64,000 bases of DNA from Streptomyces roseicoloratus (GTDB lineage: Bacteria > Actinomycetota > Actinomycetes > Streptomycetales > Streptomycetaceae). This document shows positions 10,500 to 20,550 of this stretch, piece by piece. Numbering within the stretch: the stretch's first letter is position 1; every line of letters starts with the position of its first letter. A program made the position numbers and the translations under genes. The notes below the pieces were generated by a model that saw nothing but the letters and a program-made list of their open reading frames with translations, made no database searches and was not told the DNA's origin. The DNA lies in contig NZ_SDOY01000086.1 of assembly GCF_004117935.1 (NCBI RefSeq), forward strand, positions 1 to 64,000, read 5' to 3'.

Positions 10500-12482
10500 G
10501 TGTCCGAGGCGACCACGAGAGCGACGGCACCGCCGAGGACGGACACCACACGACGCGGACCCGTCGTCGCCGCGCTGATGCTGGGCATGGCGCTCGCCGC
10601 ACTGGACGGCACGATCGTGTCCACCGCCGTCCCGCAGATCGTCGGCGACCTCGGCGGCCTGTCCGTCTTCTCCTGGCTGTTCTCCGGCTACCTCCTCGCC
10701 GTGACCGTGACCCTGCCCGTGTACGGCAAGCTCAGCGACACCTTCGGCCGCAAGCCCGTCCTCCTCGCGGGCATCGTGCTCTTCCTGGCCGGCTCGGTGC
10801 TGTGCGCCTGCGCGTGGGACATGGGCTCGCTCATCGCCTTCCGGGTCGTCCAGGGCCTCGGCGGCGGCGCGCTCCAAGGCACCGTCCAGACCCTCGCCGC
10901 CGACCTCTACCCACTGAAGGAACGCCCCCGCATCCAGGCCAGGCTCTCCTCGGTCTGGGCCACCGCGTCGGTGGCGGGCCCTGCGGCCGGCGGCCTGCTC
11001 GCCGGCTACGCCGACTGGCGCTGGATCTTCCTGGTCAACCTGCCGGTCGGAGCGGCGGCCCTGTGGCTGGTGGCACGCTACCTGGTGGAACCGGGCACGG
11101 CGACGGCGGTACGGGGCGGGGGCGGCGGCCTGGGGCGGGGCGGGCAGGGCGGGCGGGGCGGCCGCGTCTCCGGAGACGCGGCCGGGGCCGGGGTCAGGAC
11201 CAAGGCCGGGGTCAGGACCAAGGGCGGGGTCGGGACCAAGGGCGGGGTCGGGGGCGGGGGTGTGGCCGGGGGCGGGGGTGTGGCCGGGGGCGGGGGTGCG
11301 GCCGGGGCCGGGAAAGGGCCGCGGGTCACCGTCGACTGGGCCGGGGCCCTCGGCGTCTTCGCCTCCGGGACGCTCCTGCTCACCGCCCTGGTCCAGGGCG
11401 GCGTCGCCTGGCCCTGGCTCTCGGCACCGTCCCTCGGCCTGTTCGGCGGCGCCGCGGCGCTCGCCGCCGTCACGGTCGTCGTCGAACGGCGGGCCGCAGA
11501 ACCGATCATCCCCGGCTGGGTCTGGCGCCGCCGCACCATCGCCGCCGTCAACCTGGCGCTCGGCGCGCTCGGCCTCCTCATGGTCGCGCCGACCGTCTTC
11601 CTGCCCACGTACGCGCAGGCCGTCCTCGGCCTCGGCCCGATCGCGGCCGGGTTCGTGCTGTCGGCGATGACCCTGAGCTGGCCGGTGTCGGCCGCGTTCT
11701 CCAACCGGATCTACCGCCGCATCGGCTTCCGGCAGACCGCCCTGCTCGGCATGAGCCTGGCCCTGCTGGTCCTGCTGGCCTTCCCGCTGCTGCCGTTCCC
11801 GGGCGAGCCCTGGCAGCCGGCGCTCCTGATGCTGCTGCTGGGCGGCGCCCTCGGCCTCTTCCAGCTGCCGCTGGTCGTCGGCGTCCAGTCGACCGTCCCG
11901 TACGAGGAGCGGGGCACGACCACCGCCTCGGTGCTCTTCGTCCGCCAGGTCGGCCAGAGCGTCGGCGCCGCCCTGTTCGGCGCCGTCGCCAACGGCGTCC
12001 TCGCCGCCCGTCTCGGCGGCGGAAGCGGTGCGGATGCGAGCACGGGTACGGGCGCGAGTACGGGTACGGGCGCGAGTGCGGGTACGGATACGGGTGACGC
12101 CGCGGCCGACCTGGACGGGCTGCTCCGTGCCCTGGAGACGCCCGGCGCGCTGACCGGCCCGGCCGCCGACCATCTGCGCCGCGCCGTCGACACGGCCGTC
12201 GACTACGTCTACCTGGGCGCGGCCGGCGCCGCCGCCCTCGCCCTGCTGGCCCTGCTCACGCTCGCCCCGCGCCGCTTCCCGGTCCTGGGCCAGGAGCCGG
12301 AAGCGGAAACGACGGCGGAGCCGGAAGCGAAGGCGGAGCCAGGCACGGTGACGGGGACGGGAGCAGGAGCGGAGAGGGGGACGGGGCCGGGAGCGGAAAG
12401 GGGGACGGGGCCGGGAGCAGGAACGGGAGCGGCGGCGGGGACGGAGCAGCAGGCGGGAGCCCCCGCCTCGGAGCGGCCTTAG
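10500..12482 (+). CDS. DHA2-type MFS multidrug exporter with repeat insertions
   Basis: 660 residues from the GTG at 10500 (GGGAGAGG upstream). Motif A GKLSDTFGRKP, motif C near VAGPAAGGLLAGY and motif D1 LDGTIVSTAVPQIVGDL mark a 14-span DHA2 drug:H+ antiporter. The loop after span 6 carries about 75 Gly-rich residues from in-frame 18-bp repeats (11193-11303). A second repeat block lies at 12036-12089 and a third low-complexity Glu/Gly/Ala tail follows the last span. All three fall in predicted cytoplasmic or loop parts, so transport is probably retained. The stop overlaps the convergent coiled-coil gene by 4 nt. Confidence 0.93.
   Translation: MSEATTRATAPPRTDTTRRGPVVAALMLGMALAALDGTIVSTAVPQIVGDLGGLSVFSWLFSGYLLAVTVTLPVYGKLSDTFGRKPVLLAGIVLFLAGSVLCACAWDMGSLIAFRVVQGLGGGALQGTVQTLAADLYPLKERPRIQARLSSVWATASVAGPAAGGLLAGYADWRWIFLVNLPVGAAALWLVARYLVEPGTATAVRGGGGGLGRGGQGGRGGRVSGDAAGAGVRTKAGVRTKGGVGTKGGVGGGGVAGGGGVAGGGGAAGAGKGPRVTVDWAGALGVFASGTLLLTALVQGGVAWPWLSAPSLGLFGGAAALAAVTVVVERRAAEPIIPGWVWRRRTIAAVNLALGALGLLMVAPTVFLPTYAQAVLGLGPIAAGFVLSAMTLSWPVSAAFSNRIYRRIGFRQTALLGMSLALLVLLAFPLLPFPGEPWQPALLMLLLGGALGLFQLPLVVGVQSTVPYEERGTTTASVLFVRQVGQSVGAALFGAVANGVLAARLGGGSGADASTGTGASTGTGASAGTDTGDAAADLDGLLRALETPGALTGPAADHLRRAVDTAVDYVYLGAAGAAALALLALLTLAPRRFPVLGQEPEAETTAEPEAKAEPGTVTGTGAGAERGTGPGAERGTGPGAGTGAAAGTEQQAGAPASERP
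11193..11303 (+). repeat. Six in-frame 18-bp repeat units inside the MFS gene
   Basis: Units start at 11193, 11211, 11229 (GTCAGGACCAAGGCCGGG type), then 11250, 11268 and 11286 (GGGGGCGGGGGTGTGGCC type). They encode hexapeptides such as VRTKGG and AGGGGV. The 18-bp period preserves the reading frame. Confidence 0.85.
12036..12089 (+). repeat. Three in-frame 18-bp repeat units in the MFS gene
   Basis: GCGAGCACGGGTACGGGC and two near copies at 12054 and 12072 encode ASTGTG-type hexapeptides in the loop before the last membrane span. Confidence 0.85.
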
Positions 12483-13381
12483 ACGTCGTCGTCCTCCGTC
12501 GGCCCGGAGCCCGTGACGCGGCCCGTCAGGGCGGACAGCGACGAGCGGATGTGCTCCATGTGGGAGTGGATCTCGTCGCGCGCCTCGTCGTGCTCGCGCA
12601 GCACCCGCTCCGTCTCGCGCTCGATCCGCTCCTGCCGCAGCCGGGCCGCGGCGAAGAGTTCCGCCGCCTCCGCGTCGGCGTCCTCCCTGCGGTGCCGGGC
12701 GGCCTCCTCGGCCTCGGCGCGTGCCCGTTCGGCCTCGGCGAGCGCCGCCTCGGCCCGGGCGACGAGCCCGTCGTGCCGGGCCTGCTGCTCGGCGAGCAGC
12801 GCCGCCGCCGCGCGCTCGGCCTCGTCCCGCAGCGCCGCCTGCTCCTCCCGCTGCCGCGCGAGCTGCGCCGCGGCCTCGTGCTCGGCGGCCTCGAAGGCGG
12901 TGCGGGCGGCGGTGCGCTGCTCCTCGGCATCGCGGCGGGCGGCGGTGACGATCGCCTCGGCCCGCTCGGCGGCCTCCTTCAGGGTGGCCTTCGCCGCCGC
13001 CTCGGCGGCCGCGGTCACGCCCTGCGCGTACGCCTCCGCCGCCTCGGCCGCCTCCTTGCCGGCCGCGGCCGCCGCCTCCGCGAGGGCCTGCGCATCCGCC
13101 TCCGCGGCCCGTACCAGCGCCTCGTCCTCCGCCTCCGCGAGCTCCAGGATGCGGCGGGCCCGCTCGCTCAGGGACTCGTAGCGCTGCGGGGCGAGCGAGG
13201 CGACCACCTCGCGCAGCCGGATCGCCTCGGCCTCCATCTCCTCGGCGACGACGGCCAGTCGGGCCGCCCGCTCCCGTGCGCCGTCCCGCTCGGCGGACAG
13301 CGCGGACAGGTAGCGGTCGACCTGATCGGGCCGGTAGCCGCGCCCGCGTCCCCCGGAGAACAGTCCGACGGAGAAACTCAT
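12479..13381 (-). CDS. DivIVA-like coiled-coil protein
   Basis: 300 residues beginning MSFSVGLFSGGRGRGYRPDQVDRYLS, a DivIVA-type N-terminus (GY.P.QVD..L), followed by an almost uninterrupted Ala/Glu/Arg coiled coil to about residue 275 and an acidic tail. Streptomyces paralogues are often annotated as cellulose-binding protein; a cytoskeletal or polar scaffold role is more likely from the sequence. It stands alone. Its stop overlaps that of the convergent MFS gene (TAA/TAG within 12479-12482), leaving no room for a terminator. Confidence 0.8.
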   Translation of the reverse strand: MSFSVGLFSGGRGRGYRPDQVDRYLSALSAERDGARERAARLAVVAEEMEAEAIRLREVVASLAPQRYESLSERARRILELAEAEDEALVRAAEADAQALAEAAAAAGKEAAEAAEAYAQGVTAAAEAAAKATLKEAAERAEAIVTAARRDAEEQRTAARTAFEAAEHEAAAQLARQREEQAALRDEAERAAAALLAEQQARHDGLVARAEAALAEAERARAEAEEAARHRREDADAEAAELFAAARLRQERIERETERVLREHDEARDEIHSHMEHIRSSLSALTGRVTGSGPTEDDDV

Positions 13382-13505: not shown

Positions 13506-16500
13506 TTACAGCAGCCCGTCCCACATCTGCTCCAGGAGCACCGACCACCAGTTCTCCGGCGACGCCAGCGCCGCCGGGTCCAGCATGGCCAGCTGCGCCT
13601 GGAAATCGACCGTCCAGCGGCCCGCCTGCTCCGGGCTGAGACCGAACCGCAGCCGCCACATCCGCCCCAGCAGCGCCAGACAGCGCACGAACTCCGGCAG
13701 CCCGGTGTTCACGAACTGCGGCGGCACCGACTGCCCGCCGGGCCCCGCCTCCACCGGGACGGCCACGATGTTCGCCGTCCCGTACTGGACACAGATCGCC
13801 CGCCCGAAGTCCGAACCGAGCACCAGGTACGAGCCCGCGTCCGCCGCCGGCTGCACCTGCCGCTGCGCCGCCAGCTCCGCCAGCGTCGGCACCACCGGCA
13901 TCGCCGGCTGCGCCCAGAAGAACGGCCCGAAGTCCGCGGGCAGCCCCGACCACACCAGCGTCACCGCCACCAGCTCCGGCACGCCCTGCCGCGACACCGC
14001 ACGCTGGTCGAAGCGCAGGATGCCGGGACCGAACGCACCGGCCAGCTCCTGCGCCACCCCGTCCGGCGGCAGCGGCGGGGCCGGCTGCACCTGCGGCAGC
14101 GGCGCCCGCACCGGCGCGGGCCGCGCCGGACCGTCCGCGACCTGGTGCAACTCGCCCTGATGGGTCAGCAGTTGCCGCATGCCCTGCTGACGGCCCGCGT
14201 GATCACGGCCGTACGGCGCGATGTTGGTGATCCGCGCCTGCGGCCAGGTCTCCCGGATCATCCGCGCGCAGTAGCCGCCCGGCAGCTCGCACGACTCCAA
14301 CTCCGTGTGCAGCTCCAGCACTTGCTGCGGCGGCACGTTCATGGCGCGCAGCTCGTGCAGGATCTGCCACTCGGGGTGCGGGGTGCCCGGCGCGGAGCGG
14401 CGGATGATCTGCTGCTCCGAACCGTCGGGCGCGCGGTAGCGCAGCACGGCCTGGTAGCCGGGCCCCACCGTCGGCATCCCCGACGGCTGCGGCTGCGGGT
14501 AGCCGTACGCGGCGGGCTGCGGCGCGACCGGTGCCTGCATGGCCGCGGGCACACCCGGAGGCGGCGGCGGGGGCGGCCCGGCGGGACCGCCCATCTGGCT
14601 CGGCTGCGCCAGCATCGTCGCGGCGTGCTCGATGCCGCCCGCCGGCGTACCGCCACCGGGCACACCCGGCGGCGGAGGCGGAGGCGGCACACCGGGACCA
14701 CCGGCGGTACCACCCGGGGCACCCGGCGTGCCTGGCGCACCCGGCGCCCCCGGGCCCATCTGGTCCGGACGCGCCAGCATCGTCGCCGCGTGCGCGACAC
14801 CGCCCGCCGGCGTACCGCCACCGGGCACACCCGGCGGCGGAGGCGGAGGCGGCACGCCAGGGCCACCGGCGGTGCCACCCGGGGCACCCGGTCCGCCGGG
14901 ACCCATCTGGTCCGGACGGGCGAGCATCGTCGCCGCGTGGTGCACGGCCGGCGGAGGCGTCGACCCGGGCGGCGGCGGGGGCCCGGGCGGACCGGGAGGC
15001 GTCGGCGCACCGGGACCCGCCGGGGCCGGGGCGGGGTCCAGGCCGGGGAAGCTGCCGTCGGGCAGCTGCGACACCAGCTGGGTGCGCACGTAGCCGCCGG
15101 GCGGCGGCGTCGTGGCCTTGCTCGTCGCGGCGTCGGCGATGTCCGCCGCGCCGGGACCAGCGGCCGGCGCCGGCGGCGGGGTCCCCGGGGCGGGCGGCGC
15201 CGGAGGGGCGGCCGGGGTGTGCGGGGCGTTCGACGGCTGGGGCGGGAGCGCCGGGCCGCCGCCCTGACCGTGCGGGGCGTCCAGGTTCAGCCGCGGGGCG
15301 ATGGCGGTCGCCGGCAGCGCGCTGCCGCCCTTCATCAGCGCCGTGGGCGCGTCCGCACCCACCACCGGCGGCGGCGCGTCCTCGTCGTCCGCGCCCGAGA
15401 GCGGCGGCGCGAACACCGTCGCCGGCAGCGGTACGGCACCGTCGGCACCGCCCGAACTCGCGTTGGCATCCGCCCACGGGCTCGACGGAGCCGAGGGGGC
15501 GGGCGGAGCCTGGGGGCTCGGCGGGGTCTGGGCGGGCACGCCGTCGTTCGCGGTCGGCTCGTAGCCGACCGGCCCACCCGCCGCGGCGGCGGACGGAACC
15601 GACCACGGCGCGTCGGACGCCTCGGCCGACGGAGCACCGGCCGGAGCCGGCTCGGACACAGGCTCGGAAACAGGCTGGGAGACCGGCTCGGACACCGGCC
15701 CCGACGTCGAATCCGCAACCGGACCGGACGCCGGGACCGGTTCCGGTTCCGGTTCCGGAGCCGCGTCAGCGGCAGGGGCCGATGCGGCCCCGCCGTCGAC
15801 CGAGTCCGTCGCCGACGCGGAATCGCCCGCCGCCACCGCATCGATCGCCGCATCCGAAGCCGAAGCGGACGCCGAAGCCGGAGCCGGAGCGGAAGCCGAA
15901 GCCGGGGCGACGGCCTCGTCCGAGCCGTCCGAGCCGACCGTCGAAGCTTCCGCCTCCGCCTCCGCCCCCGACACACCCGGCACATCCGACACACCCGGCA
16001 CACCCGCACCAGCAGCAGCCGCAGCCGGCACCGAAGCCTCATCCGACCCCGACGCCACCGGAATCCCACCCACCGGCGTCGACGACGCGCTCTCCGGCGA
16101 CGCCTCCGCGCTCGCCTGCGACGCGTTCGACTCCACCGGCGGCAGACCGATCTTGTCCGCCGCCTCCTGCAGCCACTCCGGCGGAGTCAGCAGGAACGAC
16201 GTCTGGTTCAGGTCGATCCGCGCCGACTGCGCCGGAACCGGAGCCGCCTCGACGGCCGCCCCGTACTCCTCCTCGTAACGGCGGATCACCTCGCCCACGG
16301 GCAACCCCGGCCACAGCGTGGCCTCACCGCTGTCCCGCGCGATGACCAGGCGCTGCCGTCCCCCGTCCGAGGTCGGCGCCTCCTCACGGTCCTCCGCCCA
16401 CACCACGAAACCCCGTGCGAACTCCCGCACCCGCACCTCACGGTGCAGATACGCGGGCACGTCGCCGTTGATCCACTCCTCGGCGCGCTCCTGCGCCTGC

Positions 16501-16514
16501 GCGAACGTCACCAT
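13506..16514 (-). CDS. Multidomain protein: Imm35-like + Pro-rich repeats + XOO_2897-like deaminase + SUKH-4
   Basis: 1002 residues from the ATG at 16514, with GGGGGAG overlapping the upstream stop (7-nt gap to the WHH gene). Residues ~1-85 (FAQAQERAEEWINGDVPAYL ... LPVGEVIRRYEEEY) resemble immunity protein 35. Residues ~115-690 are Pro/Ala/Gly-rich with repeated ATMLARPDQM motifs between polyproline runs. Residues ~700-770 carry a deaminase-like set: HPEW (His713, Glu715) and ESCELPGGYC (Cys742, Cys749), as in XOO_2897-type nucleotide/nucleic-acid deaminases. Residues ~800-990 (LPADFGPFFWAQP, YLVLGSDFGRAICVQYG, FVNTGLPEFVRCL) fit SUKH-4. No signal peptide or secretion domain is seen. Domain names are from memory; the toxin-plus-immunity reading is inference. 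Confidence 0.75.
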   Translation of the reverse strand: MVTFAQAQERAEEWINGDVPAYLHREVRVREFARGFVVWAEDREEAPTSDGGRQRLVIARDSGEATLWPGLPVGEVIRRYEEEYGAAVEAAPVPAQSARIDLNQTSFLLTPPEWLQEAADKIGLPPVESNASQASAEASPESASSTPVGGIPVASGSDEASVPAAAAAGAGVPGVSDVPGVSGAEAEAEASTVGSDGSDEAVAPASASAPAPASASASASDAAIDAVAAGDSASATDSVDGGAASAPAADAAPEPEPEPVPASGPVADSTSGPVSEPVSQPVSEPVSEPAPAGAPSAEASDAPWSVPSAAAAGGPVGYEPTANDGVPAQTPPSPQAPPAPSAPSSPWADANASSGGADGAVPLPATVFAPPLSGADDEDAPPPVVGADAPTALMKGGSALPATAIAPRLNLDAPHGQGGGPALPPQPSNAPHTPAAPPAPPAPGTPPPAPAAGPGAADIADAATSKATTPPPGGYVRTQLVSQLPDGSFPGLDPAPAPAGPGAPTPPGPPGPPPPPGSTPPPAVHHAATMLARPDQMGPGGPGAPGGTAGGPGVPPPPPPPGVPGGGTPAGGVAHAATMLARPDQMGPGAPGAPGTPGAPGGTAGGPGVPPPPPPPGVPGGGTPAGGIEHAATMLAQPSQMGGPAGPPPPPPPGVPAAMQAPVAPQPAAYGYPQPQPSGMPTVGPGYQAVLRYRAPDGSEQQIIRRSAPGTPHPEWQILHELRAMNVPPQQVLELHTELESCELPGGYCARMIRETWPQARITNIAPYGRDHAGRQQGMRQLLTHQGELHQVADGPARPAPVRAPLPQVQPAPPLPPDGVAQELAGAFGPGILRFDQRAVSRQGVPELVAVTLVWSGLPADFGPFFWAQPAMPVVPTLAELAAQRQVQPAADAGSYLVLGSDFGRAICVQYGTANIVAVPVEAGPGGQSVPPQFVNTGLPEFVRCLALLGRMWRLRFGLSPEQAGRWTVDFQAQLAMLDPAALASPENWWSVLLEQMWDGLL
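14588..14946 (-). repeat. Coding repeats: ATMLARPDQM blocks separated by polyproline
   Basis: Three copies of HAATMLARPDQMG (the last as HAATMLAQPSQMG) lie about 150 bp apart, near 14905-14944, 14755-14795 and 14590-14630. They are separated by near-identical GVPPPPPPPGVPGGGTPAGG linkers. The second and third units are nearly identical in DNA, indicating recent duplication. Confidence 0.85.
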
Positions 16515-16521
16515 CGCCAGC

Positions 16522-17526
16522 TCACTCCCCCACCGGGACCACGGGCACGGCACGCGCGAAGCCGCCGTCCACCATCAGGTTCGCCACCGTCTCCAGCTCC
16601 GGCGGACTGCCCGCAAGACGCTGCAGGAACTCGTCGAAATCCGCGCCGCAGGGCAGCAGCAACCGCTCCACCCGCTCGTTCACCGTCCAGCCGGCCGCGA
16701 GCTCACCGGCGTCCCGCGCGTCGTCGTACGGGCAGAACCACACCGAGCCGACCGACTCCCCGCGCACCTTCAGCGCGAGCAGACCACCCTGCACGAACGC
16801 GACGCCCAGGTAGTCCTTCGTCAGGTGGTCACGCAGACACTTGTTGACGTAGACGAGGTCGTTGACCCCCGCCTCCTCGCGCAACGTGAAGAACGGCTGG
16901 TCCACCAGGAGCCCCAGCTCCGCGTCCAGCGCCGTACCCACCGGAGCGGCACCACCCGCCGCCTTCAGGAACGAGCGGTACGCCCCCGGCAGCCGGTAGC
17001 CCAGGTCCTCCTCCACGCCCTGCACCTGCTGCTCCGACACCGACACCACACGCTTCGGCAGCCCGAAGTGCACCGGCCGGGTCTCCTGCAGCGGCCGCGT
17101 GCCGCGCTTGTACTGGTCCACGCCCGACGCCGTCGCCACCCCGCCGTGGTGCCGCAGCAGCGCCTTCACCTCGACCGGGACCAACTCAAGACGGCGCGAG
17201 TGCGCCACGTGGTGCCACGTCCAGCCGTGCGGCGTCGCCACCGCCGGGATCGTGTCCCACAGCTCGTGCCCCGTCGCCGCGAGCGCCGCGTTCGCCGACA
17301 CGTAGTCCGTCAGACGCAGCTCGTCGACGCCGAAACCCTCCGGCGGATCGGCGATCTCCGCCGCCGCGCGCGCGTACGGAGAGAAATCCGGGTAGCCGCG
17401 CTCGTCCACCCGTACCCCTCGCGGGTGACGGGAGGCCCGGACCGGGTCCGGGAAGTGCACGACCTGCCCGGCGTACGCCGCGTTCGGCGGCGGCGCGGTG
17501 TCCTGGCCGAGCCGACCTGTCGTCAT
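16522..17526 (-). CDS. WHH-type HNH nuclease domain fused to a SUKH (SMI1/KNR4) domain
   Basis: 334 residues, ATG at 17526 with GGGGG upstream. Residues ~40-130 read GYPDFSPYA ... VSANAALAATG ... PHGWTWHHVAHSRRLELVP ... LRHHGG. This is the pattern of WHH-class HNH/endonuclease VII toxins (Trp104-His105-His106, His126/127). From ~170, VQGVEEDLGYRLPGAYRSFL ... FFTLREE ... LLALKVRGESVGSVWFCPYDD is a SUKH-1/SMI1-KNR4 immunity fold. A nuclease and its likely neutraliser in one chain suggest self-inhibition or a domesticated pair. It is the first gene of a minus-strand operon with the deaminase/SUKH-4 gene and has a structured leader at 17559-17623. Confidence 0.8.
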   Translation of the reverse strand: MTTGRLGQDTAPPPNAAYAGQVVHFPDPVRASRHPRGVRVDERGYPDFSPYARAAAEIADPPEGFGVDELRLTDYVSANAALAATGHELWDTIPAVATPHGWTWHHVAHSRRLELVPVEVKALLRHHGGVATASGVDQYKRGTRPLQETRPVHFGLPKRVVSVSEQQVQGVEEDLGYRLPGAYRSFLKAAGGAAPVGTALDAELGLLVDQPFFTLREEAGVNDLVYVNKCLRDHLTKDYLGVAFVQGGLLALKVRGESVGSVWFCPYDDARDAGELAAGWTVNERVERLLLPCGADFDEFLQRLAGSPPELETVANLMVDGGFARAVPVVPVGE

Positions 17527-17558
17527 GGCGGTTGCCCCCTGAGTGGCTGTGGCTGCCA

Positions 17559-17623
17559 GGCCGTTTCCTCTGGATCTCGCCCGGGTCCGCGGCCTATCCG
17601 ACCCGGATCCGAAAGAAACGGCC
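17559..17623 (-). promoter_or_regulatory. Extended hairpin in the leader of the WHH-SUKH operon
   Basis: Nested complementary arms: GGCCGTTTC/GAAACGGCC (17559-17567 with 17615-17623), then GGATC/GATCC, then CGGGTC/GACCCG, about 20 pairs around a loop rich in G and C. It lies 33 nt upstream of the ATG at 17526, inside any 5' leader. It could act as an attenuator, a protein-binding leader or an operator. The 351-bp gap to the divergent gene at 17878 also holds TGTCACGACGGCATGACAG, an inverted repeat near 17733-17752; no further gene is seen. Confidence 0.55.
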
Positions 17624-17877
17624 TAGGGCCTGACTGCTTCTGTTTCCCTGGCTGGTCCGCACAGCCTAAGCGCTGCCCGGAACTCCCGGCCCGGCCCGCC
17701 CCGAGCCCGCCACCTGCACCGCCTCCATCGTGACCAACTGTCACGACGGCATGACAGCACCGCCATGATTCCGACACACCGAAAGCATGTTTCCGCGCCC
17801 CAGCTTCCCCATCGGGCAGCGAGTTTGGCAGGCTGTTCACGCAACTCGGGGGATTGCAGGAGGGGAAGACCAGCACC

Positions 17878-18399
17878 ATGCACGCAAGCGCCACACCAGC
17901 ACCAACGCCCACGCAGGGTGACCCACGCCTCAGCTGGGGCCACGACGCCGACACCCACCGGGCCCCCTTACTGCGTCACCGCCGCGACGGAATCCTGCCC
18001 ACCGTCGGCGCGGCCCTCTCCGTCCGCGGCGAAACCCTCACCTGCACCGCCGCCCGCGGCGACCTCCCGCCCACCCTCCACCCGCTCGTCCAGGACTTCC
18101 TCGACACCCTCACCAGCGGACAGCGCGAACGGTTCACCGGCCGCTGCCCCGAGGCGATCCTGCTGTCCCGGCACCTCAGCGCCGCCGAGAACAACCGCTC
18201 CAAGCGCGCCCAGCGCAAGCCGCTCACCCACAGCGAGGCCCGCCGCTCCCTCAAGCACGCCAAGCTCACGGCACGCCGCATCCGCGAGGACGGCGACCCG
18301 CTGCACGGCAGCTACGCCGCACCCTGCCGCTCCTGTACGGCGATGCTGGCCCACTTCGGAGTCCGAACGGTCGACCCGACCACCACCCAGAACAGCTGA
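17878..18399 (+). CDS. YwqJ-like deaminase-family protein
   Basis: 173 residues from the ATG at 17878 (AGGAGGGG 12-19 nt upstream; an in-frame TTG at 17854 is an alternative). The fold signature is GRCPEAILLSRHL (Cys90-Pro-Glu92) followed by HGSYAAPCRSCTAML (Cys150, Cys153), the CxE/CxxC zinc and catalytic set of YwqJ-type toxin deaminases. No secretion signal. The SUKH-3 gene follows 9 nt later, matching the toxin-immunity pairing described for these families. Activity on RNA, DNA or free nucleotides cannot be told from sequence. Confidence 0.75.
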   Translation: MHASATPAPTPTQGDPRLSWGHDADTHRAPLLRHRRDGILPTVGAALSVRGETLTCTAARGDLPPTLHPLVQDFLDTLTSGQRERFTGRCPEAILLSRHLSAAENNRSKRAQRKPLTHSEARRSLKHAKLTARRIREDGDPLHGSYAAPCRSCTAMLAHFGVRTVDPTTTQNS

Positions 18400-18408
18400 C
18401 CGACACCC

Positions 18409-18909
18409 ATGCCCGATCTGAACAGCACCCGCTTCCCGGTCAACGTCGACGCCGCACTGCGCGACGCCGGCTGGCAGCCCGGCCGCTGGGACATCAAGCT
18501 CGCCGAGGAATGGGCCGACGCCCTGCGCGGCCACGTCTCCGCCGGCGGCCACCGGCACAGCGTCTTCCCCGCCGTCGTCGAGGCCTGGGCCGAATTCGGC
18601 GGGCTGCGCGTCACCGCACCCGGCCACGGCCGGCAGATAGCCCCCGCGACCGTCCGCTTCGACCCCCTCGCCGGCCTCCACCTGGCCCGCACCCTCGGCG
18701 ACCTCGGCCGCGCCCTCGACACCGAGCTGGCCCCCCTGGGCGAGGAGGGCGAGGACGACGGACAGCGGGCGGTCCTCGCGATGGACGCCGAGGGCAGGGT
18801 GTACAGCATCGACCACACCGGCGACTGGTACCTCGGCCGCGACATCGACACGGCCCTCGCCACCCTGATCACCGGCACCCAACCCACCCGCCTGGTGGCA
18901 GGCCCGTAA
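18409..18909 (+). CDS. SUKH-3 family immunity protein
   Basis: 166 residues; FPVNVDAALRDAGWQPGRWD, EEWADALRG, FPAVVEAWAEFGGLRV and VYSIDHTGDWYLGRDIDTAL match SUKH-3. It is probably the neutralising partner of the deaminase encoded 9 nt upstream. No ribosome-binding site is obvious before the ATG at 18409, so translational coupling is plausible. Confidence 0.85.
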   Translation: MPDLNSTRFPVNVDAALRDAGWQPGRWDIKLAEEWADALRGHVSAGGHRHSVFPAVVEAWAEFGGLRVTAPGHGRQIAPATVRFDPLAGLHLARTLGDLGRALDTELAPLGEEGEDDGQRAVLAMDAEGRVYSIDHTGDWYLGRDIDTALATLITGTQPTRLVAGP

Positions 18910-18996: not shown

Positions 18997-20397
18997 TCAG
19001 GAGGCCGCCGCCGCGGCCTCCCGCACCGGCAGGACCGCACTCACCCGGAAGCCACCCGCCTCCGTCGGACCCGACACGAAGACACCGCCCAGACGGGTCA
19101 CCCGCTCCCGCATCCCGACCAGGCCGTTGCCACCGCTCGGCAGATCCGCGTCGGCAACCGTCGCGTCCGACGGACCGTTCTCCACCTGCATCGCGACCTC
19201 CGCCTCCCGATGCGCGAGACGGACGACGACCCTGGCACCCGCCGCATGCTTGTGGACGTTCGTCAACGCCTCCTGCACCACCCGGTACGCCGTCTGCTCC
19301 ACCTCGGCCCCGTACGGCCGGGCCTCACCCGTCACCAGCAGCTCCACGACCGCACCCGCCTGACGCGACTGCTCGACCAACGCCTCCAGGGCATCCAGAC
19401 AAGGCCCGTCACCACCGGCCCCGCCCTGACGACCCCCGTCCCCGCCGTCCCCACCCTCCGCAGCCGCCTCCGCAGCCGCCGCGGCCGCCCGACCCACCGC
19501 CGCCAGCGGCACCACCGAGGCCGGCCCGGCCACCGGAACCACCGCGGGAACCTCCTCCCGGAGCACACCCAACATCTCCCGCAGCTCCGACAGGGCCTGC
19601 CGGCCCATGTCCCCCACCAGCGCCGCGTTCTTCACCGCCTTCTGCGGATCCTTCAACGCCACCGCCTGCAACGCCGCCGCATGCACCACCATCAACGACA
19701 CCCGGTGCGCCACCACGTCATGCATCTCCCGCGCGATCCGCCGGCGCTCCTCCTGCCGCGCCCACTGCGCCCGCTGCTCCGCCCGGTCCGCAAGAAGGGA
19801 GAGCTCCTGCTCCAGACTGTCGGCGCGCTCCCGCAACGACTCCATGAGCCGCCGCCGGGCCCCTATGTAAAGACCGAAAAGCACCGGCGGCGCGTTGAAC
19901 CCGAGCGTCATGAACAACGACACGACCGGCACGTACCAGCCACTCGGATCGAAGTCCTGCTGGTCCACGTCGGCCTGCGCGACATCCTGGCGCAGCCGCA
20001 CCATGGTCACGATGTACACGGCCACCGTCGACATACCGGCCAAACCGGCGGTGAAACGACGGGGCACCTCGGACGCGGCCAGCGAATAGAGACCGACGAT
20101 CCCCATAAGGAAGCCCATCTCGGCCGGCGTCACGGCGATCGAGACGAGCACCACGGTGATGGGCCACTTCCGCCGCACCAACAGCACGGACCCCACGACC
20201 AGCCCGAACAGCACGCCCACCGGCACAGGCAACGACGCCTCCTGCGCGAACCCGACCCCTTCGAGCCCGCACTCCAGCGCCGACACCACGGCCAGCGAGA
20301 CATCCAGCACGACACCGCGCCGTCTCCCCCACCACCACCAGCTCCGCCCGGCACTCCCCGCGCCCACTGCGCCCCGGTCCGCCCCCGTTGTGGTCAT
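18997..20397 (-). CDS. NarL-family sensor histidine kinase without adjacent response regulator
   Basis: 466 residues from the ATG at 20397 (GGGAGG just upstream). About five membrane spans in the first 200 residues, then the HisKA_3 dimerisation helix with H-box REMHDVVAHRVSLMVVHA (RRIAREMHD) and a HATPase_c domain (EQTAYRVVQEALTNVHKHA, GGNGLVGMRERV). A Gly/Ala-rich insert (AAAAAEAAAEGGDGG) lies between helix and ATPase. Phosphorylates a NarL-type regulator, but none lies beside it; regulators at 33911 and 38249 are candidates only by family. Confidence 0.92.
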   Translation of the reverse strand: MTTTGADRGAVGAGSAGRSWWWWGRRRGVVLDVSLAVVSALECGLEGVGFAQEASLPVPVGVLFGLVVGSVLLVRRKWPITVVLVSIAVTPAEMGFLMGIVGLYSLAASEVPRRFTAGLAGMSTVAVYIVTMVRLRQDVAQADVDQQDFDPSGWYVPVVSLFMTLGFNAPPVLFGLYIGARRRLMESLRERADSLEQELSLLADRAEQRAQWARQEERRRIAREMHDVVAHRVSLMVVHAAALQAVALKDPQKAVKNAALVGDMGRQALSELREMLGVLREEVPAVVPVAGPASVVPLAAVGRAAAAAAEAAAEGGDGGDGGRQGGAGGDGPCLDALEALVEQSRQAGAVVELLVTGEARPYGAEVEQTAYRVVQEALTNVHKHAAGARVVVRLAHREAEVAMQVENGPSDATVADADLPSGGNGLVGMRERVTRLGGVFVSGPTEAGGFRVSAVLPVREAAAAAS

Positions 20398-20550
20398 GCC
20401 TCCCACCCTACGATCGAGGGCCACCCATTTTCCCGCCTCCCACCGCCCCGGGAGCGCCGCCCGTCAACACGAGTGGACACCAGTCCCTCGAACAGTTGAA
20501 TCGGCATCATTTTCGACCCGGACGTCCGCATTCCGGACGACGCTCGTCCC

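What the first reader, a model, noticed from the sequence alone, without database searches (positions are those of the whole stretch)
13506..18909. Four-gene nuclease/deaminase and SUKH immunity cluster without a delivery module
Seen: three predicted nucleic-acid-attacking domains (XOO_2897-like deaminase, WHH nuclease, YwqJ-like deaminase) and three SUKH-type domains plus an Imm35-like domain lie in 5.4 kb of otherwise core genes, arranged divergently around one promoter region. Known: SUKH proteins neutralise such toxins in polymorphic toxin systems. Unusual: no signal peptide, no RHS/WXG/secretion domain, and toxin and immunity domains are fused in the same chain in two genes. Inference: an intracellular, self-inhibited defence or stress system rather than a contact toxin, triggered when the SUKH domain releases the enzyme.
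Basis: partly seen in the sequence, partly recalled or inferred. Interest (0 to 1): 0.8.

Follow-up and report, generated by a model that had tools for sequence, protein, structure and literature searches.

The report
Domesticated toxin enzymes in Streptomyces core
Streptomyces bacteria carry, at one fixed place in nearly every species sampled, four genes built from parts of bacterial weapons (one predicted DNA-cutting and two predicted nucleic-acid-editing enzymes with their blockers) that show no delivery part yet are conserved about as strictly as an essential gene, so they probably do an unknown job inside the cell.

Summary
In detail: four genes at 13506-18909 carry an XOO_2897 deaminase fused to SUKH-4, a WHH nuclease fused to SUKH-1, a YwqJ deaminase, and SUKH-3, with no signal peptide or WXG part found. 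The 'Imm35' domain is not confirmed. The new fact is distribution: 121 of 121 genus genomes have gene A or B, with the start of A next to B in 91 of 91 fetched core loci from 15 genera. In a class-wide draw of 345 genomes only 4-5 genomes outside the genus match. Catalytic residues are invariant in the core copies aligned: 85 of 85, 92 of 92, 84 of 84. B is at least as conserved as GlmU. Relatives elsewhere lie in WXG toxin loci; fused ones often lost catalytic residues. Best reading: T7SS toxin-immunity cassettes domesticated early in Streptomycetaceae into intracellular, SUKH-restrained, active enzymes. Activity, self-inhibition, trigger and purpose are inferred. Universality and slow change argue against an arms-race defence; a developmental or stress role is my guess.

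The parts
13506..16514 (-). Gene A, 1002 aa: N-terminal small domain, long Pro/Ala/Gly-rich linker, XOO_2897-type deaminase, SUKH-4
   Evidence: syntenic orthologues
16260..16514 (-). Gene A N-terminal domain (residues 1-85), similar to parts of proteins in T7SS-type loci; Imm35-like layout, not matched by the Imm35 model
14469..16172 (-). Gene A low-complexity linker with recurring Thr motifs; linker 226-830 aa in the 70 orthologues read; T-x-[LIVFM]-[AVSMG] 384 observed against 72.8 (sd 7.6) in shuffled linkers (related sequences, so counts are not independent)
14163..14465 (-). Gene A deaminase domain (residues 684-784); HPE and C-x6-C invariant in 85 of 85 sequences
13527..14054 (-). Gene A SUKH-4 domain (residues 821-996)
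16522..17526 (-). Gene B, 334 aa: WHH (HNH/ColE-type) nuclease fused to SUKH-1; A starts after a 7-base gap
17128..17238 (-). Gene B WHH motif region (residues 97-133); WHH and the downstream HH invariant in 92 of 92
16621..17040 (-). Gene B SUKH-1 domain (residues 163-302)
17854..18399 (+). Gene C: YwqJ-type deaminase (TTG at 17854, or ATG at 17878); C-x-E and CxxC invariant in 84 of 84 (two short rows dropped)
18409..18909 (+). Gene D: SUKH-3 protein, directly downstream of C
17660..17668 (-). TAGGCTGTG, -10-like element upstream of B (reading as -10 is by eye); GCATAGGCTGT with <=1 mismatch in 77 of 77 intergenic regions (window plus 76 named Streptomyces loci)
17824..17836 (-). Conserved block ACAGCCTGCCAAA upstream of C (75 of 77 with <=2 mismatches; 0 in shuffles)
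17527..17540 (-). Conserved B leader with probable ribosome-binding site, AGGGGGCAACCG (73 of 77)

Best explanation
The locus is a set of polymorphic-toxin cassettes that came from type VII secretion (WXG) toxin loci and was fixed and domesticated early in the family Streptomycetaceae. Genes B and A make cytosolic enzymes, a nuclease and a nucleic-acid deaminase, each carrying its own inhibitor (SUKH) in the same chain; C and D are a deaminase and its SUKH-3 partner in a neighbouring two-gene unit. I think the enzymes are made as latent proteins from a conserved promoter, are held off by the SUKH domains, and act on the cell's own or incoming nucleic acid when a signal relieves the restraint, possibly through the Thr-centred motifs in A's linker. 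The most likely use is a developmental or stress programme of the mycelium, such as regulated cell death, rather than attack on rivals. SHOWN: domain identity by HMM, catalytic-residue conservation, synteny, mostly vertical descent, purifying selection, relatives in WXG toxin loci. INFERRED: enzyme activity, restraint in cis, trigger, purpose, direction and date of the domestication.
For: Universality: B in 114 of 121 genus genomes, C in 114, D in 117; the 7 without B all have A (G008 only part of it). In G014, G081, G120 and G008 the locus is cut by contig ends. Family draw: 77 of 81 match B, core-type B in 15 of 17 genera. Synteny: B and the start of A adjacent on one strand in 91 of 91 core loci; C divergent within 900 bp of B in 78. 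Catalytic residues invariant. Conservation: identity to the window's protein in the same genus draw, medians counted by hand from the listings, is 85% for B (111 complete matches) and 82% for GlmU (118). dN/dS in the even draw: A deaminase 0.157, B nuclease part 0.170, B SUKH-1 0.184, A SUKH-4 0.234, neighbouring kinase 0.354, coiled-coil neighbour 0.636; distances in named loci correlate with GlmU (r 0.59-0.87). Core A and core B each form one side of a fully supported branch against the relatives included. Origin: L127 has a WXG100_2-Gln_amidase-WHH toxin and SUKH-1, then B-, C- and D-like genes; L145 has a WXG100_2-YwqJ toxin, SUKH-3 and a lone YwqJ. Contrast: 7 of 7 A paralogues read outside the core locus lost both Cys, 6 of 7 also the His; fused B relatives in L130-L132 lost WHH residues.
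Against: No activity, inhibition, expression or mutant phenotype is known to me. Models are poor, so docking of SUKH on the enzyme is untested. Genus g2 lacks A and B (3 of 3 genomes) and g5 has only distant relatives, so the locus is not indispensable for the whole family. C and D evolve about as fast as the neighbouring kinase (dN/dS 0.38 and 0.37), and no C was found in six of the 91 core loci, so they may have a different role. B's upstream GH motif is not fully invariant (H in 90 of 92). L127-L129 and L146 keep WHH outside the core locus, so loss of catalysis is not the rule for every relative. The window's genome also holds an ordinary-looking long protein with the same deaminase family.
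Confidence: 0.55

Rival explanations
1. The proteins are still delivered weapons: A, B or C are exported by T7SS, a contractile injection system or lysis, and the SUKH domains protect the producer.
For: Nearest relatives sit in WXG toxin loci, and A paralogues lie near FtsK/SpoIIIE- or WXG-type genes; Streptomyces contractile injection systems are tied to regulated cell death (stated in PMC11297309, passages seen).
Against: No WXG domain or signal peptide in the four proteins; a toxin fused to its immunity domain would be delivered blocked (reasoning); weapons used against kin should vary between strains, these do not.
Confidence: 0.17
2. Anti-phage or anti-plasmid defence by abortive infection, with SUKH as sensor.
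For: Nucleases and deaminases are common defence effectors (general knowledge); auto-inhibited effectors fit.
Against: Universal in the genus sample, single locus, slowly evolving; no PADLOC hit at E 0.1; no phage record in the collection carries a B relative at E 1e-3.
Confidence: 0.13
3. Polyimmunity or decoy proteins: the toxin-like domain is a mimic that holds or presents the SUKH domain against incoming toxins.
For: Polyimmunity proteins with SUKH are described (PMC3482391, passages seen); paralogues with dead catalytic sites exist.
Against: In the core genes the catalytic residues never vary, and A's deaminase is more constrained than its SUKH-4 (0.157 against 0.234; for B the gap is small, 0.170 against 0.184); orphan SUKH immunity genes are reported to evolve fast (PMC12247911, abstract).
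Confidence: 0.08
4. Unused relics of toxin cassettes, kept by chance beside essential genes.
For: Standalone toxin cassettes are a known feature of polymorphic toxin loci (PMC3482391, passages seen).
Against: Invariant catalytic residues and strong purifying selection.
Confidence: 0.03

Closest known systems
Polymorphic toxin systems, T7SS (WXG) branch, with standalone toxin-immunity cassettes
   Same: Same toxin families (WHH, YwqJ, XOO_2897) and same immunity superfamily (SUKH); B-, C- and D-like genes occur in a row downstream of a WXG100_2-WHH toxin and SUKH-1 in L127.
   Different: No delivery module, two enzymes fused to their SUKH domain, no strain-to-strain change of toxin type in the loci examined; fixed core locus.
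Type II toxin-antitoxin modules
   Same: Intracellular toxin-like enzyme next to a protein inhibitor (C-D).
   Different: Inhibitor is a SUKH protein; A and B carry enzyme and inhibitor in one chain; neither mobile nor patchy in the samples searched. Toxicity and neutralisation are untested.
Proteins with A's domain order and a degenerate deaminase (P0005-P0008 and others)
   Same: Small N-terminal domain, XOO_2897-type domain, SUKH-4.
   Different: Both Cys lost in 7 of 7 read, His lost in 6 of 7; short linker; some near FtsK/SpoIIIE- or WXG100_2-type genes (L253, L256).
rAID orphan SUKH immunity genes
   Same: SUKH proteins without an attached secretion system.
   Different: Those are immunity genes alone and evolve fast (PMC12247911, abstract); these keep their enzymes and evolve slowly.

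Membership tests
Polymorphic toxin system | C-terminal toxin domain of a known toxin family | tested here: inconclusive
   Toxin domains present, but in A and B they are followed by SUKH instead of ending the chain
Polymorphic toxin system | N-terminal trafficking or secretion module | tested here: not met
   No Pfam WXG/RHS hit and no hydrophobic N-terminus
Polymorphic toxin system | Linked immunity protein | tested here: met
   SUKH-1, -3, -4
Polymorphic toxin system | Toxin polymorphism between close strains or species | tested here: not met
   Same B-A arrangement in 91 of 91 core loci; complete core B matches in the genus are 77-92% identical to the window's B
XOO_2897-type deaminase | HMM match, H-x-E and Cys pair | tested here: met
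   E 4.6e-38; 85 of 85
XOO_2897-type deaminase | Deaminase fold | tested here: inconclusive
   Order b-b-a-b-a-b-a in a model with pLDDT block means 55-87 over the first 80 residues; 14 best Foldseek matches are deaminases, best E 0.14, none <= 0.001
WHH nuclease (HNH/EndoVII) | WHH, L, H, HxG motif | tested here: met
   E 9.6e-14; WHH and downstream HH in 92 of 92
WHH nuclease (HNH/EndoVII) | HNH fold | tested here: inconclusive
   AlphaFold model of B unusable, pLDDT 40
YwqJ-type deaminase | HMM match and C-x-E / CxxC | tested here: met
   E 9.1e-27; 84 of 84, two short rows dropped
SUKH superfamily | HMM match | tested here: met
Imm35 | HMM match of the A N-terminal domain | tested here: not met
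   No hit; weak profile match
Known anti-phage defence system | PADLOC model match | tested here: not met
   No hit at E 0.1
Type II toxin-antitoxin | Toxin arrests growth and antitoxin reverses it | not testable with these tools
   Needs expression assays

The most novel reading that the evidence does not exclude
Streptomycetaceae have turned weapon enzymes into a core cellular system: latent SUKH-locked nuclease and deaminases that cut and edit the cell's own nucleic acids as part of mycelial development or stress, with the Thr-motif linker of A as the input that unlocks it. This would be a bacterial counterpart of domesticated deaminases and apoptotic nucleases in eukaryotes, with the inhibitor built into the enzyme.
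Probability: 0.25. Interest if true: 0.85.

Novelty: new variant of a known kind. Interest (0 to 1): 0.62.

Why it matters
Polymorphic toxin enzymes are known as variable weapons. Here three of them sit at one conserved locus through the main antibiotic-producing genus and most sampled genera of its family; the two that are fused to SUKH are conserved about as strictly as the essential cell-wall enzyme GlmU, and my searches of the held library found no paper on their function. If active, they are a concrete, deletable candidate set for unidentified nucleases of Streptomyces regulated cell death, and a natural model of self-inhibited nucleic-acid deaminases. Paralogues with a degenerate active site provide a built-in comparison.

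Tried and rejected
Rejected: patchy polymorphic toxin, relic, phage- or plasmid-borne unit (no phage hit; six plasmid records, only one covering 80% or more of B, 36.6% identical). Apparent losses checked: contig ends inside the locus in G014, G081, G120, G008 and G061, a run of N in L233 (same place as L101), and an adapter-like misjoin, judged by eye, in L185; none is counted as a real loss. G033, G099 and G114 have A but no B, C or D match; their assemblies are fragmented, and I did not inspect the contigs. Led nowhere: NCBIfam and PADLOC; PDB sequence search with A and B profiles (best E 0.19 and 0.032, short stretches); AlphaFold of B; promoter consensus scan (none); Imm35 assignment. Literature: ten searches, judged from listings except for the papers named with passages, showed no paper on A-D. 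By synteny A-D should be about SCO3115-SCO3118 of S. coelicolor (SCO3114 rod-domain neighbour, PMC2680258 passages; SCO3119 orphan kinase, PMC9739842 passage); this mapping is inferred, and mostly open-licence papers are held.

Caveats and dropped rows: dN/dS is a simple Nei-Gojobori estimate on GC-rich genes, pairs with 0.1<dS<1.2 only. The 80 named loci were the best B matches among at least 498 and were found by two B peptides, one being the WHH stretch, so values for B are biased upward in conservation (A deaminase 0.125, B nuclease part 0.122, GlmU 0.176); on checking I repeated the estimate on the evenly drawn genus loci, where both are higher and GlmU was not in the fetched stretch; the GlmU comparison there is by identity only. 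In the class draw non-matching genomes are mostly not listed; 14 further handles were looked at and none is of the genus. Conservation counts leave out outgroup loci L127-L133, L145, L146 and, for C, L142 and L143. L193 has a stop in A's C-terminal frame and was left out of alignment A3. A linkers could be read in 70 of 85 loci. Three genus genomes have one TGA inside the matched B stretch; all fetched core B rows kept over 85% of the length before the stop. Trees used 22 core A rows and 20 core B rows with 4 and 7 relatives; the B tree was flagged for long branches. L252 was not readable.
Full report
WHAT IS THERE. Pfam-A places the main domains above gathering cut-offs: gene A (13506-16514, minus, 1002 aa) has an XOO_2897-type deaminase at residues 684-784 and SUKH-4 at 821-996; gene B (16522-17526, minus, 334 aa) has a WHH nuclease at 97-133 (the Colicin-DNase model also matches, 40-128) and SUKH-1 at 163-302; gene C (17854-18399, plus) is a YwqJ-type deaminase; gene D (18409-18909, plus) is SUKH-3. 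Seven bases separate B and A, so B-A is probably one unit; C-D is the other, divergent from it. None of the four has a hydrophobic N-terminus, and no secretion domain was matched. NCBIfam and PADLOC give nothing at E 0.1. The N-terminal domain of A that was called Imm35-like is not matched by Pfam even at E 10; the Imm35 model does not ring there in a six-frame search, and a profile comparison with six Imm35-type proteins is only suggestive. A similar small domain is seen, by eye and in a forced alignment, in proteins outside the locus (P0005-P0009, P0012).

DISTRIBUTION. This is a core locus. In 121 genomes of the genus, B is found in 114, C in 114 and D in 117. The seven without B all have A (in G008 only part), so 121 of 121 carry A or B. 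In G014, G081, G120 and G008 the locus is cut by contig ends; G033, G099 and G114 were not inspected further. That the genus is Streptomyces is inferred from the named relatives. In 81 genomes drawn from the family, 77 match B. The three matching g5 genomes have only a distant relative (42-43%), so core-type B occurs in 15 of 17 genera; genus g2 has neither A nor B (3 of 3 genomes). In a class-wide draw of 345 genomes, 37 match B, 33 of them of the genus, and 38 match A's deaminase-SUKH-4 part, the same 33 plus 5 others. Non-matching genomes are mostly not listed there, so I cannot state the exact number of genus members drawn; 14 further handles looked at were all of other genera and without a match.

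SYNTENY. In 91 fetched core loci (60 of the genus, 31 of 14 other genera), B and the start of A are adjacent on one strand in 91, C and D lie on one strand in 82, C is divergent within 900 bp of B in 78, and no C was found in six. Deaminase plus SUKH-4 of A are seen in 84 of the 91; the other seven are cut by contig ends (six) or masked (L101). In G012 the C-D pair lies elsewhere in the genome. Of 80 named Streptomyces loci, A's start and B are present in 80, D in 78, C in 77, the kinase gene in 77, A's deaminase and SUKH-4 in 69; several of the rest end before that point, and L185 is a misjoin. No phage record and few plasmid records carry a B relative.

SELECTION. Catalytic residues do not vary in the core copies aligned: A has HPE and C-x6-C in 85 of 85, B has WHH and the downstream HH in 92 of 92, C has C-x-E and CxxC in 84 of 84; an upstream His of B varies in 2 of 92. 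On the evenly drawn genus loci plus the window (48-61 sequences per gene), median pairwise identity and dN/dS are: A deaminase 0.873 and 0.157, B nuclease part 0.837 and 0.170, B SUKH-1 0.839 and 0.184, A SUKH-4 0.821 and 0.234, A N-terminal domain 0.786 and 0.252, C 0.722 and 0.383, D 0.731 and 0.368, kinase 0.709 and 0.354, coiled-coil neighbour 0.495 and 0.636. In the named loci, which were picked by B itself and so are biased, the values are lower (A deaminase 0.125, B nuclease part 0.122, GlmU 0.176). An unpicked comparison with GlmU is the identity to the window's protein in the same genus draw: median 85% for B (111 complete matches) and 82% for GlmU (118), both medians counted by hand from the listings. 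So B is at least as conserved as an essential enzyme. Distances correlate with GlmU distances (r 0.59 for B's nuclease part, 0.75-0.87 for the other parts of A-D), as expected for mainly vertical descent. Core A and core B are each separated from the relatives included by a fully supported branch.

ORIGIN. Relatives outside the core locus point to WXG (type VII) toxin loci. In L127 (genus g5) a gene weakly matching WXG100 and a toxin with WXG100_2, two glutamine-deamidase domains and a C-terminal WHH are followed by SUKH-1, then by B-, C- and D-like genes at 41, 36 and 40% identity (D-like SUKH-3 confirmed). In L145 a WXG100_2-YwqJ toxin is followed by SUKH-3 and a lone YwqJ, then a D-like gene. 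In L132 a WXG100_2 protein precedes a WHH-SUKH-1 gene. A paralogues of 431-443 aa have A's domain order without the long linker; L253 lies near an FtsK/SpoIIIE-family gene and L256 near a WXG100_2 gene, whereas L249 and L250 show no such neighbour by eye. All seven such paralogues that could be read have lost both deaminase Cys, six of them also the His. The fused B relatives in L130, L131 and L132 have lost WHH residues, whereas L127-L129, L133 and L146 keep WHH. So the fused fold can live on without catalysis, and its strict retention in the core genes suggests that catalysis is used.

OTHER FEATURES. The linker of A is 226-830 residues long in the 70 orthologues that could be read, rich in Pro, Ala and Gly, yet holds a recurring Thr motif: T-x-[LIVFM]-[AVSMG] occurs 384 times against 72.8 (sd 7.6, 300 shuffles), and a copy of [APE]T[MV][LFM]A is present in 67 of 70. 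Its partner is unknown; a phospho-threonine site is only a guess. In 77 intergenic regions (window and 76 named loci), GCATAGGCTGT before B is present in 77 with at most one mismatch, ACAGCCTGCCAAA before C in 75, a B leader in 73, while other blocks seen in close relatives are found in only 18 to 58. AlphaFold was of limited use because the permitted alignments are shallow: B failed; A's C-terminal part has mean pLDDT 50, with block means of 55-87 over the first 80 residues of the deaminase and the deaminase order of elements. The 14 best Foldseek matches are deaminases (APOBEC3H, blasticidin S deaminase and others; DddA at rank 50), but none reaches E 0.001, and unrelated folds begin at rank 15.

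MECHANISM. I read the locus as domesticated T7SS toxin cassettes: enzymes that stay in the cytosol, held by SUKH domains in the same chain (A, B) or by a neighbour (D for C), and used for an internal purpose. Universality and slow evolution argue against arms-race roles (contact weapon, phage defence) and for physiology. Streptomyces regulated cell death involves an intracellular nuclease activity of about 25 kDa and DNA breakdown (S. natalensis; PMC4530454, passages seen) and contractile injection systems (PMC11297309, passages seen); a link to this locus is my guess and untested. Activity, self-inhibition, trigger and purpose are all inferred.

LITERATURE. PMC3482391 (passages seen) lists SUKH as immunity for WHH, YwqJ and XOO_2897 toxins, notes occasional SUKH fusions to toxin and immunity domains, and describes standalone cassettes, so fusion and lack of delivery are not new by themselves. 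PMC12247911 (abstract) reports fast evolution of orphan SUKH immunity genes, the opposite of what is seen here. Ten searches of the held library showed no paper on these genes; most subscription papers are not held, and two papers that I recall as relevant were not available.

Noticed in passing
L249:5834-7129, L250:5763-7064, L251, L253:6516-7847, L254, L255, L256:5820-7139: Proteins with A's domain order but a degenerate deaminase (both Cys lost in 7 of 7, His in 6 of 7); L253 is near an FtsK/SpoIIIE-family gene and L256 near a WXG100_2 gene.
   Followed up: partly
window 14469-16172 and orthologous linkers: Ordered, recurring Thr-centred short motifs in an otherwise poorly conserved Pro/Ala-rich linker; binding partner unknown.
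   Followed up: partly
L127:1973-11809: WXG toxin locus with WHH toxin, SUKH-1, WHH-SUKH fusion, YwqJ and SUKH-3 in a row: a possible picture of the ancestral cassette set.
   Followed up: yes
L002 (G000:C174:37054-37296): A second XOO_2897-type deaminase in the window's own genome, near the C-terminus of a long protein (open frame 1555 aa), with a small downstream gene.
   Followed up: no
L234 (G012:C1:8912000-8926000): The C-D pair lies near the chromosome end, away from B-A at 4.2 Mb; GlmU of this genome is elsewhere too (7.39 Mb): probably large rearrangements.
   Followed up: no
L193:10936-11895: In-frame stop in the A C-terminal region of S. alfalfae; sequencing error or true defect not resolved.
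   Followed up: no
window 12479-13381 and 18997-20424: Neighbours: a fast-evolving coiled-coil gene, probably SCO3114 (rod-domain protein, PMC2680258), and an orphan histidine kinase, probably SCO3119, named as a possible direct target of negative regulation by AtrA (PMC13170358, passage); both by synteny.
   Followed up: partly
L185:9390 onward: Adapter-like sequence followed by an mfd-like frame inside gene A, judged by eye: apparent assembly misjoin in a public genome (S. mexicanus).
   Followed up: partly
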